DNA of 64,000 nucleotides from a bacterium (lineage in GTDB: Bacteria > Zhuqueibacterota > QNDG01 > JAFGCO01), in contig JAFGCO010000065.1 in the NCBI GenBank assembly GCA_016932575.1, positions 84,465 through 148,464 on the forward strand. The letters are read 5' to 3'. Positions 59,329 through 64,000 of the stretch are shown here, in pieces. The translations under genes were made by a program, and so were the position numbers. How positions within the stretch are numbered: position 1 is the stretch's first letter; each line of letters opens with the position of its first letter. The notes under the pieces are model-generated. The model was not told where the DNA came from, searched no databases, and worked only from the letters and a program-made list of their open reading frames with translations.

Positions 59329-59799
59329 CTAATCCAGCCCCAGCAGGAAGCGGACCATTTCTTCATTCCACCCTTTTACTTTTTTTTCACCAACCAAAAT
59401 AAATGGCACACCTTCACCGCCAAGTGCCTGAAATTTTTGATAATATTCTTCCGATTCTTCAATGTGATAATCCTTGTAAGGGATGCGGTTCTGTTTAAAA
59501 AAGTTACGTGCAATTTGACAGGTATTGGATTCCCGGGTTGAATACATAACAATCCGCGGAAATCGACCGGCACTTCTTTGTTTTTCCTGTTCGGCTATCG
59601 CCTCTTCCAATGCTTTTCTCTCTTGCTCAAGCTCTTCAGGAGATGCTGTTTCTTTTTCTTTATAATCTTCCACCTTTGCTTCTTCAGGTGGTGGCGTGCT
59701 CGAATAATGTTTGACTCCATTTTCATCTACCCAGAAATAAATCTGAGCCAATAACAATACCGGGATGAACACGACCAAAGTGGTTTGCCACAAATTCAT
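59329..59799 (-). CDS. DUF4124 plus glutaredoxin-like protein with an S-x-x-C active site
   Basis: 156 residues. A membrane anchor (about 5-20) leads into the DUF4124-type IYFWVDENGVKHYSSTPP, a charged coiled coil and then a glutaredoxin fold (about 82-156). The active site reads SNTC (Ser91-Cys94) where glutaredoxins have CxxC or CxxS, so the N-terminal Cys is lost. The cis-Pro loop GVPFILVGEKKVKGW is normal. The orientation suggests a periplasmic domain. Redox activity in the usual sense is unlikely. Confidence 0.82.
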   Translation of the reverse strand: MNLWQTTLVVFIPVLLLAQIYFWVDENGVKHYSSTPPPEEAKVEDYKEKETASPEELEQERKALEEAIAEQEKQRSAGRFPRIVMYSTRESNTCQIARNFFKQNRIPYKDYHIEESEEYYQKFQALGGEGVPFILVGEKKVKGWNEEMVRFLLGLD

Positions 59800-61195: not shown

Positions 61196-61609
61196 ATGGA
61201 TGCCATTAAAAATTCATCACCCAACAATATTGATCAGATTCGAAACCTGATATTCGGTGAACAGATTCAAGATTACGAACGGCGTTTCCAGGAACTTATA
61301 AAAAAGTTTGAAAATTTAAAAAAATCCCTCCAGATTCAAAAAAATGAATTGGATGAGCAACTCAATAAAATGGAATTCAATTTTAAACAGTCATTGTCTG
61401 ATCAACATAACGATTTACAGAAAGAACTGAAGAAACAAACACAATTTATAAAGCAGGAAATCCTCACGGTCGAAGAGCATCTGTCTAAGCTGACAGAGGA
61501 TAAACTCGATAAAAATCAGATGGCCGATCTGCTGATTAACCTTGCCATGCAGTTAAAAGGCGAATCCATTTTAGATCAAATTGACAGGGATATCACTCCT
61601 CATGAGTAA
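61196..61609 (+). CDS. Coiled-coil protein of the GTPase cluster
   Basis: 137 residues. The N-terminus has QIRNLIFGEQIQDYERRF, then a long Lys/Glu/Gln-rich coiled coil to about residue 105 and a final helix. I recognise this only as a short protein that co-occurs with the next two genes in other bacteria. Its stop overlaps the start of the 306-aa-frame gene by 8 nt, so it is coupled to it. Confidence 0.75.
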   Translation: MDAIKNSSPNNIDQIRNLIFGEQIQDYERRFQELIKKFENLKKSLQIQKNELDEQLNKMEFNFKQSLSDQHNDLQKELKKQTQFIKQEILTVEEHLSKLTEDKLDKNQMADLLINLAMQLKGESILDQIDRDITPHE

Positions 61610-62501
61610 AAACAGAGATCTAATAAACGTAACGAATGATCAGGCATTTGAACAGTTAAAAGCCCTGCTTTTGAGTGATGACTGGAAAAATTTCAGTGAG
61701 ATTCGGGATCAGGTGGAATCACTGGCAAAGGAAGTGCATGATAAAGATCAGCTTATTGAAATGCTAGATCCGATTATTGCTGACCTGCTTGACCGCAAAA
61801 TCCATGAATCCAGATCTGAAATGGCCGAAGCCCTTGCCCCTATCATGGGAGACGCTATTAAACGGCAGATCGAAGATGCCAAAGAAGACATGGTAGATGC
61901 GCTCTATCCGATCATAGGCAGGATGGTCACCAAAGCCATCAATGAAGCAATGAAAAAATTGATCGAAGAGATCAATTCACGCATTCAACAGGCGGCCAAT
62001 ACCCGTTTTATGATATTTGTTAAATCCAAGGTATTCAAGATACAGCCGGCAGAAGTTGTGCTTGCCGATGGTGTTTTATTCTGCCTGGAGGAATTATTCC
62101 TCATTGAAAAAAAATCCGGTTTGCTGATTGGATATCAGAGTCAAAATAACGATCAATCGGAAAAAAATGCACATATTCTTGGCGGCATGCTGACCGCTAT
62201 ACGGCAATTCGTGAATGACGCATTCGCAAAAGATGAAAAAAGCAATTTAATTGAAATTCAGCATGAAGATCACAATATTAGGATTGACACAGCGAGGTAT
62301 ACGGTTCTCGCCGCTGTGTACCGGGGAATTTCACCCCACGATTTTCAAGACAATCTTCACGGGCTGCATCACCGAATCCATAACAGATACTACAGACGGC
62401 TCAGGGATTTTAAGGGAGAAACATCCGAATTCCAGGGTGTCAGTCCGGTCATGAAACGGCTTTTTCAGAAATACAGGCATCATGGCTCAAATAATAAATA
62501 A
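61602..62501 (+). CDS. Uncharacterised GTPase-cluster protein
   Basis: 299 residues from the ATG at 61602. The N-terminal third has repeated amphipathic segments ending in IADLLDRKIHE, IMGDAIKRQIED and IIGRMVTKAINEA, three near-equal helical units. A helical connection leads to a globular part with LADGVLFCLEELFLIEKKSGLLIGY and GGMLTAIRQFVNDAF, which matches a domain I know from the N-termini of certain OmpA-family proteins, where it lacks a defined role. It overlaps the GTPase gene by 20 nt. Confidence 0.7.
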   Translation: MSKNRDLINVTNDQAFEQLKALLLSDDWKNFSEIRDQVESLAKEVHDKDQLIEMLDPIIADLLDRKIHESRSEMAEALAPIMGDAIKRQIEDAKEDMVDALYPIIGRMVTKAINEAMKKLIEEINSRIQQAANTRFMIFVKSKVFKIQPAEVVLADGVLFCLEELFLIEKKSGLLIGYQSQNNDQSEKNAHILGGMLTAIRQFVNDAFAKDEKSNLIEIQHEDHNIRIDTARYTVLAAVYRGISPHDFQDNLHGLHHRIHNRYYRRLRDFKGETSEFQGVSPVMKRLFQKYRHHGSNNK

Positions 62502-63009
62502 AAAAATATGTCTGCTTGGAGAATATGGCGCGGGCAAAACCAGCATGATCCGTCGGTTTGTTTTTGATTTGTTCAGTGATGATTATATCACTACAATCGG
62601 TGTGAAGGTCACTGAAAAAGTGCTGCCTCCAATTGAAAGAGAAAATAAATTGCAGCAATTCCGTTTCATGATCTGGGATATTGCCGGATCTGAAGAGGGT
62701 AAAATCAAGCATGAAAACTATTGGATGGGTGCATCAGGCGCACTGATTGTCACAGATCTTTGCCGGCCGAAGACCTTCTCCTGCACATCATCACTCATCG
62801 AAAAATTTCTGGCCTTGAATAATAATCCCCCGATCGTTATTGTGGGCAATAAAACAGATCTGATACCCTTGACCGAACTCAATTCCCTTGAAACCACTCT
62901 GCAGGAAATGGCTCACACTTATCGATGTCCGGCTCTTCTCACCAGTGCAAAAACAGGACAGCAGGTTGAAGAGAGTTTTATCCGGCTGGCCCAATGTATG
63001 ATGGAATAA
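62482..63009 (+). CDS. Ras-superfamily small GTPase
   Basis: 175 residues with all five G motifs: GEYGAGKT (13-20), Thr of TTIGV (switch I), WDIAG (65-69), NKTD (123-126) and TSAKTG (154-159). The residue after DIAG is Ser70 instead of the catalytic Gln of Rab/Ras, so intrinsic GTP hydrolysis is probably slow and may need a partner. There is no C-terminal prenylation motif. The overall form is Rab-like rather than MglA or elongation-factor-like. It is translationally coupled to the upstream gene. Confidence 0.9.
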   Translation: MAQIINKKICLLGEYGAGKTSMIRRFVFDLFSDDYITTIGVKVTEKVLPPIERENKLQQFRFMIWDIAGSEEGKIKHENYWMGASGALIVTDLCRPKTFSCTSSLIEKFLALNNNPPIVIVGNKTDLIPLTELNSLETTLQEMAHTYRCPALLTSAKTGQQVEESFIRLAQCMME

Positions 63010-63012
63010 TCC

Positions 63013-64000
63013 ATGACAGAATCATCTTTAAGCACAATCATTTTAGAGTCACTGCAAGCCGGATGGATCTTTCTTGATCAGGATTTACGGATCGTTCAAT
63101 TCAATTCTCTCTTTCAAACATGGCATCCACATTATCAAACATTTGATAAACTGTCAGTCACAGAAGTGCTGCCAGAAACCGTCGGACTGGATCTGCTCTT
63201 TAAAGAGTTGATCTCAGGTAAACAAACCGCGTTCACACTGTCTCACATCGAAAAAGAGTCATTAAAAAAAGAGACTGGCTATTTCAACCTTATTTTCCTC
63301 TCGACTAAAATACCAGAAAAACCCATACTCATCTTACTGTTTAATGATACAGACTTTGCTCTAATAGTGCAAAAAGTCCAGCAGCAATCATATGAAATTA
63401 AACTGATGCGCAGTTTGCTGCACACAAAAACAGCCATGGCTTCCGGACTAATCGGTTCTTCCGAGCCCATAAATCGATTAAGAAATATGATCGAAAAAGT
63501 AGCATCGGTTCCCTACTCCACCATTCTTATTCAGGGGGAGACAGGAACTGGGAAAAGCCTTGTGGCATACATGATACATCACCTGACAGACAAAAGAGAC
63601 CGGCCATTTATTGAATTCAATTGTGCTGCAGTGCCTGAGACACTGCTGGAATCAGAACTATTTGGATATGAAAAGGGAGCATTTACGCATGCTGCTGCAC
63701 TTAAAAAAGGACTTTTGGAAGAAGCCAATGGCGGCACATTATTCCTCGATGAGATCGGAGATGTCCCTATAAATCTTCAGTCCAAATTGTTAACCGTGCT
63801 TGAATCCCGAAAATTCCGCCGGCTCGGCAGTACCAGAGAAACGACTTCAAAATTTCGTCTGATAGCCGCAACAAACCGAAATTTAAAAATAATGCTTGAA
63901 AAAAACAAATTCCGGGAAGATTTATTTTACCGGATACAGGTTGTTACTATAAACTGCCCTCCTCTGCGCGATCTGGGAGATGACCTGATATCCATTGCAC
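63013..64000 (+). CDS. PAS-domain sigma-54-dependent activator (C-terminus cut by window edge)
   Basis: About 329 residues are present. A PAS-like sensor (about 1-125) precedes an AAA+ sigma-54 activator core with Walker A GETGTGKS (175-182) and Walker [12 protein letters not shown]. The GAFTGA loop that contacts sigma-54 reads GAFTHA (222-227). The DNA-binding domain lies past the window end. It starts 3 bp after the GTPase gene, so the GTPase may feed into its control. Confidence 0.92.

What the first reader, a model, noticed from the sequence alone, without database searches (positions are those of the whole stretch)
61196..64000. Four-gene Ras-like GTPase and sigma-54 module
Coiled-coil protein, three-repeat/OmpA-associated domain protein, Rab-like GTPase and PAS/sigma-54 activator overlap or abut (8-nt overlap, 20-nt overlap, 3-nt gap). 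Ras-like GTPases with a dedicated activator neighbour are unusual in bacteria, and the unknown proteins could act as GAP, GEF or effector. This is the best candidate for an undescribed signalling system here.
Basis: inference. Interest (0 to 1): 0.75.

Follow-up and report, generated by a model that had tools for sequence, protein, structure and literature searches.

The report
Bacterial Ras-like switch with sigma-54 output
This is a conserved bacterial gene set in which a Ras/Rab-like molecular switch, a wall-linked partner that resembles the proteins that switch on Rabs in our own cells, and a gene activator travel together; the basic operon was described in 2014, but the gene-activator output and the Rab-regulator-like partner appear to be new.

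Summary
Coiled-coil (61196-61609), repeat+domain (61602-62501), Ras/Rab-like GTPase (62482-63009) and PAS/sigma-54 activator (63013 to 64389 equivalent, past the window end) have exactly the stated overlaps. On the full contig a fifth gene, an OmpA-domain protein, follows the activator.

It is not an undescribed system. It matches the "Group 1 Rup" operon of Wuichet & Søgaard-Andersen 2014 (PMC4316618): coiled coil, unknown domain with OmpA, Rup GTPase without the G3 glutamine, and an output protein whose N-terminal region carries an invariant glutamine (here Q124).

Two things look new. First, the output is a sigma-54 enhancer-binding protein in 25 of 29 evaluable genomes of this phylum and in none of 26 neighbourhoods fetched from other phyla, where outputs are kinases, diguanylate cyclases, HD-GYP, PP2C or nucleotide cyclases. 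These activators never carry GAFTGA (GAFT[N/H/D]A in 25/25). Second, the unknown domain probably has a longin fold closest to TRAPPC1/Bet5, part of the eukaryotic Rab1 exchange factor; profile-profile support is moderate (probability 45-73%) and no confident structure model was possible.

Best reading: an envelope-linked Rab-like switch that gates sigma-54 transcription.

The parts
61196..61609 (+). Gene 1: cytosolic coiled-coil protein, 137 aa, with conserved N-terminal motif NNIDQIRNLIFG
   Evidence: ORF; homologue directly upstream of gene 2 in nearly all loci, including cyanobacteria (GNIDQIRDIIFG)
61602..62501 (+). Gene 2: 299-aa repeat + longin-like-domain protein (fused to TM+OmpA in most relatives)
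   Evidence: Alignments; relatives in 30 of 82 phylum genomes; OmpA fusion
61764..61970 (+). Three 23-aa repeats (xP[IV][IM]G... units) of gene 2
   Evidence: P56, P79, P102 at 23-residue spacing, invariant in the six-sequence alignment
62046..62438 (+). C-terminal longin-like domain (inferred bb-a-bbb-a), including GMLTAIRQF helix
   Evidence: PDB profile search hits BET5/TRAPPC1 (E 0.5-1.5), Pfam longin families among the weak hits, hhalign to TRAPPC1 family with nulls
62482..63009 (+). Gene 3: Rup-type Ras/Rab-like GTPase, 175 aa
   Evidence: Pfam Ras 3.1e-27; tree with the cyanobacterial Rups, apart from MglA, 100/100
62518..62541 (+). P-loop GEYGAGKT, aromatic at Ras Gly12 position
   Evidence: F/Y in 51 of 52 Rups
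62674..62697 (+). G3 motif WDIAGSEE, no catalytic glutamine
   Evidence: 0 of 25 phylum members have Gln at this place (alignment)
63013..64000 (+). Gene 4: PAS-like + sigma-54 AAA+ enhancer-binding protein, 458 aa; continues past the window to equivalent 64389. Gene 5 (OmpA protein) follows at equivalent 64386-65036, outside the window
63013..63429 (+). N-terminal PAS-like domain shared with other Rup outputs; invariant Gln124 at 63382-63384
   Evidence: Alignment of 54 output proteins, Gln in 53
63676..63693 (+). Variant sigma-54 contact loop GAFTHA
   Evidence: GAFT[N/H/D]A in 25 of 25 Rup-linked activators; GAFTGA or GSFTGA in most other activators of the same genome

Best explanation
The locus is a Group 1 Rup signalling operon whose output has become a sigma-54 transcription activator. 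Gene 2 presents a longin-like domain that binds the Rab-like GTPase and sets its nucleotide state, most likely as an exchange factor or loading platform, as the TRAPPC1/Bet5 longin pair does for Rab1. It is tied to the envelope by an OmpA peptidoglycan-binding domain, fused in most relatives and encoded by gene 5 here, so envelope state is the likely input. GTP-bound Rup then docks on the PAS-like N-terminal domain of the activator and relieves or imposes inhibition of its AAA+ motor, which opens sigma-54 promoters; the invariant Gln124 in the linker helix may complete the GTPase active site in trans and end the signal. The coiled-coil protein is a scaffold. Shown: gene order and conservation, the domain content, loss of the G3 Gln, the shared Gln-bearing input domain, rpoN in the genome. 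Inferred: longin fold, GEF role, GTPase-activator contact, envelope input, coiled-coil role, and any target genes.
For: Order coiled coil - gene 2 - Rup - sigma-54 activator in 25 of 29 evaluable genomes. The same first three genes with other outputs in cyanobacteria and other phyla. PAS-like domain with Gln in 53 of 54 outputs, including all the sigma-54 ones. G3 Gln absent in 25 of 25 phylum members, F/Y at Ras12 in 51 of 52. Gene 2 domain: BET5 and TRAPPC1 are two of only three PDB matches at E<10; Pfam Intu_longin_1, Fuz_longin_3 and Fuz_longin_1 among weak matches; hhalign to the TRAPPC1 family 73%, and 61% and 45% for two subsets, against 0.1-0.5% for reversed profiles and 0 of 60 block shuffles for each alignment. 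OmpA fused or as gene 5. rpoN present.
Against: No physical interaction shown. The PDB matches have E 0.5-1.5, and a reversed-sequence control profile also gave two matches at E near 1; subset profiles A9 and A10 did not find TRAPP in the PDB by hmmsearch; the profile of this phylum's own members alone reached only 15% in hhalign. AlphaFold with two sequences gave unusable models (pLDDT 37 and 45). The sigma-54 contact loop departs from GAFTGA in all 25, so sigma-54 activation is not certain. No -24/-12 site lies upstream of the window operon.
Confidence: 0.6

Rival explanations
1. Gene 2 is not a Rab-GEF-like longin protein but a GAP or passive anchor; the fold is unrelated or roadblock-like, as in MglB.
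For: MglB, the known bacterial GAP, is a roadblock protein, and gene 2 aligns collinearly with roadblock profiles over 74-79 columns.
Against: Roadblock scores are weak (probability about 5%) and reached by 10-column block shuffles in 14 of 100 cases; TRAPPC1-type longin scores are far higher. The 2014 survey found no Rup coupled to MglB.
Confidence: 0.2
2. The GTPase works beside the activator, not upstream of it: the activator's PAS-like domain senses a small ligand and the GTPase operon merely shares an input (co-location without direct contact).
For: The N-terminal domain is PAS-like and could bind a ligand; no interaction data exist.
Against: The same domain is kept in Rup-linked outputs of entirely different chemistry and follows the GTPase gene in most loci, which points to the GTPase as the shared partner.
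Confidence: 0.15
3. The activator no longer activates sigma-54; it is an AAA+ regulator of another kind because the GAFTGA loop is changed.
For: GAFT[N/H/D]A in 25 of 25, while most other activators in this genome have GAFTGA or GSFTGA.
Against: P-loop, catalytic motifs and the Fis-type HTH are intact; one other activator of the genome has GAFTDA; a perfect -24/-12 site lies upstream of the operon in two sister genomes.
Confidence: 0.15

Closest known systems
Group 1 Rup system (Wuichet & Søgaard-Andersen 2014, PMC4316618)
   Same: Coiled-coil gene, unknown-domain/OmpA gene, Rup GTPase without G3 Gln, output protein with invariant-Gln N-terminal region, no MglB
   Different: Output is a sigma-54 activator instead of a c-di-GMP enzyme or histidine kinase; OmpA is a separate fifth gene here; the unknown domain is now assigned, tentatively, to longin
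TRAPP core longin pair TRAPPC1-TRAPPC4 (Bet5-Trs23) with Rab1/Ypt1
   Same: Rab-like GTPase beside a protein with a TRAPPC1-like longin domain
   Different: Bacterial, linked to peptidoglycan-binding OmpA, Bet3-type subunits not searched for, activity untested
MglA-MglB and actinobacterial conservons
   Same: Bacterial Ras-like GTPase with neighbouring partner and a signalling output
   Different: GTPase is Rup, not MglA; no roadblock gene in the operon; this genome has a separate MglB-type roadblock gene and MglA at contig C18
NtrC/NifA-type sigma-54 enhancer-binding proteins
   Same: Sigma-54 AAA+ domain and Fis HTH
   Different: Input domain is the Rup-output PAS-like domain; GAFTGA loop is GAFT[N/H/D]A

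Membership tests
Group 1 Rup system | Rup-family GTPase, distinct from MglA | tested here: met
   Groups with cyanobacterial Rups, MglA separate at 100/100; no published Group 1 reference sequence was placed in the tree
Group 1 Rup system | G3 lacks the catalytic glutamine | tested here: met
   WDIAGSEE; 0 of 25 phylum members have Gln. Four Rups outside the phylum do (DIEGQT or DVEGQT)
Group 1 Rup system | Neighbouring coiled-coil gene | tested here: met
Group 1 Rup system | Neighbouring unknown-domain protein, often with TM and OmpA | tested here: met
   Fused in most relatives; separate gene 5 here
Group 1 Rup system | Output module with N-terminal region holding an invariant Gln | tested here: met
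   Q124; Gln in 53 of 54 aligned outputs. That this is the same Gln as in the 2014 figure is inferred, as figures are not held
Group 1 Rup system | Output typically c-di-GMP enzyme or histidine kinase | tested here: not met
   Sigma-54 activator; the paper calls these outputs typical, so this is not a defining feature
MglA/MglB system | Adjacent MglB roadblock gene | tested here: not met
   Only roadblock gene found in the genome is on contig C18
Longin domain (TRAPPC1/Bet5-like) | Sequence-profile relationship | tested here: inconclusive
   hhalign 45-73%, above nulls; PDB E 0.5-1.5; reversed control also gives matches near E 1
Longin domain (TRAPPC1/Bet5-like) | Longin three-dimensional fold and GTPase-binding face | not testable with these tools
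   Models with two sequences failed; relatives from the genome search were not among the sequences listed as allowed for modelling
Sigma-54 enhancer-binding proteins | AAA+ sigma-54 interaction domain and DNA-binding domain | tested here: met
   Sigma54_activat 9e-66, HTH_8 2e-15; rpoN present
Sigma-54 enhancer-binding proteins | GAFTGA loop | tested here: not met
   GAFTHA here; GAFT[N/H/D]A in 25 of 25. The AAA+ family assignment does not rest on this loop, but the claim that it activates sigma-54 is weakened

The most novel reading that the evidence does not exclude
Bacteria hold an ancient operon pairing a Rab-like GTPase with a TRAPPC1-type longin regulator, so the Rab-longin exchange machinery has a bacterial counterpart with its own conserved gene order; in this phylum it gates sigma-54 transcription from the cell envelope.
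Probability: 0.45. Interest if true: 0.85.

Novelty: new variant of a known kind. Interest (0 to 1): 0.62.

Why it matters
Group 1 Rups were reported as very similar to the eukaryotic Rab/Ran/Ras/Rho group, and no member had been characterised in the 2014 survey (PMC4316618). A longin-type partner in the same operon would give these bacterial GTPases a regulator of the same fold that acts on Rabs, and would bear on how Rab control arose: PMC3521125 derives longin domains from roadblock domains, and PMC10933270 notes that in the Asgard archaeon MK-D1 GTPase genes do not generally share operons with longin genes. A sigma-54 output would also make the pathway readable by simple transcription assays.

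Tried and rejected
Roadblock (MglB-like) fold for gene 2: only weak hhalign scores that block shuffles can match. Viral contigs: no relatives. Genome contig scan with one protein: one relative only. Sigma-54 promoter scan: no site before this operon; recurrent sites inside the Rup genes are coding sequence. Pfam and NCBIfam name neither gene 1 nor gene 2. Surveys centred on two small phyla added nothing new.

Full report
Observation. Translation and Pfam confirm the four ORFs and all three stated junctions: with the ATG at 61602 the overlap is 8 nt, then 20 nt, then a 3-nt gap. The window ends inside the activator. The contig (G000:C16) shows that this protein is 458 aa, with a sigma-54 AAA+ domain, AAA lid and Fis-type HTH, and that a 216-aa OmpA-domain protein follows, overlapping it by 4 nt (window-equivalent 64386-65036). 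The module is therefore five genes, not four.

Neighbourhood survey. Gene 2 relatives occur in 30 of 82 genomes of the phylum. In 25 of the 29 that can be judged (one contig ends after gene 2), gene 2 is followed by the Rup GTPase and a PAS/sigma-54 activator; in one of these (G080) another ORF intervenes, in two (G070, G071) there is a gap before Rup, and in G007 the run is split over two contigs. The four exceptions are one genus (G074-G077), which keeps only genes 1 and 2. In most genomes gene 2 is fused to TM+OmpA; in G000, G007, G019 and G038 OmpA is a separate gene after the activator.

Other phyla. The family is rarer outside: 6 further genomes among about 306 of other phyla, 33 of 291 genomes of the phylum of G127, and plasmids of Nostoc, Rhizobium and Mesorhizobium. 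The phylum of G127 is Cyanobacteriota: contig G551:C7 has the same length, 1036473, as the Nostoc plasmid NZ_CP117772.1, and the two carry identical Rups. Of 20 cyanobacterial loci, 19 have the Rup directly downstream of gene 2 or one ORF further. Outputs there and elsewhere are histidine kinases, hybrid kinases, GGDEF, HD-GYP, a SpoIIE-type phosphatase and nucleotide cyclases; a sigma-54 profile found none among the 26 loci scanned, nor in the three plasmid loci.

What it is. Wuichet and Søgaard-Andersen (PMC4316618) described Group 1 Rup GTPases as lying with a coiled-coil gene, a gene for an unknown domain often followed by a TM helix and OmpA, and an output protein, typically a c-di-GMP enzyme or histidine kinase, with an N-terminal region holding an invariant glutamine. 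Their text does not mention sigma factors, enhancers or NtrC. The window locus meets these features apart from the typical kind of output. The GTPase has WDIAGSEE in G3, and none of 25 phylum members has the glutamine; F or Y replaces Ras Gly12 in 51 of 52. A tree puts all 52 Rups apart from MglA at 100/100, with the phylum's Rups as one group at weak support (74/5). In an alignment of 54 output N-domains, one linker-helix glutamine is present in 53, including the window's Q124. That this is the residue of the 2014 figure is my inference.

The unknown domain. The C-terminal part of gene 2 has the inferred order bb-a-bbb-a. A profile of 50 members found only three PDB sequences at E<10, two of them TRAPP longin subunits (BET5 E 0.53, TRAPPC1 E 1.5), and the Pfam scan of the members listed three longin families among 22 weak ones, Intu_longin_1 first (E 0.0074). 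The shared core reads GMLTAIRDFV against GMLFSIRSFV. These E-values alone are at noise level: a reversed-sequence profile also gave two matches near E 1, and two subset profiles missed TRAPP in the PDB. Profile-profile comparison is stronger: 73% for all members, 61% for cyanobacterial and 45% for other members against a four-sequence TRAPPC1 family. Scores for four alignments, which share some members, beat all 60 block shuffles each, and reversed profiles fell to 0.5% or less; the phylum's own members alone reached only 15%. The TRAPPC1 family was chosen because it was the hit, so this is support, not proof.

Mechanism. I infer an envelope-linked longin protein that loads or positions Rup, and Rup-GTP acting on the shared PAS-like input domain. 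The domain's retention across unrelated outputs is the main argument that the GTPase, not a ligand, is its common partner. The genome has rpoN and about 20 sigma-54 activators. All 25 Rup-linked activators have GAFTNA, GAFTHA or GAFTDA, whereas 13 of 15 loops recovered from this genome read GAFTGA or GSFTGA. This is a coherent, unexplained signature of the branch. A perfect -24/-12 site lies about 180 bp upstream of gene 1 in two sister genomes but not here, so autoregulation is possible there only.

Verdict. A known, experimentally unexplored operon type, with a new output class and a probable new assignment for its unknown domain.

Noticed in passing
63676-63693 and 24 homologous activators: The sigma-54 contact loop is GAFT[N/H/D]A in every Rup-linked activator, never GAFTGA.
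   Followed up: partly
L063 and L065, sites at 2384 and 1049 counted in the direction of the operon: Perfect TGGCAC-N5-TTGCA sites about 180 bp upstream of the coiled-coil gene in two sister genomes.
   Followed up: partly
L006 8993-9442 and L016 3386-3910: A single-domain response regulator follows the OmpA gene in two genomes of the same order.
   Followed up: no
L073-L076: One genus (G074-G077) keeps the coiled-coil and gene 2 proteins without Rup, OmpA or activator nearby.
   Followed up: no
G000:C18:245045-246027: A separate MglB-type roadblock gene and MglA GTPase in the same genome.
   Followed up: partly
G483, G422, G579, G587 gene 2 proteins: Cyanobacterial gene 2 proteins lie in open frames of 900-1220 aa with many extra matches to the repeat region.
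   Followed up: no
L056 3195-4136 and L031: The gene 2 reading frame is interrupted by a stop in G062; a stop also lies in the match in G069.
   Followed up: no
L168, L169, L171: In some cyanobacteria the gene after Rup is a stand-alone N-domain-like protein of about 132-135 aa without any output domain.
   Followed up: partly
59329-59799: DUF4124 plus glutaredoxin domain protein on the minus strand.
   Followed up: no
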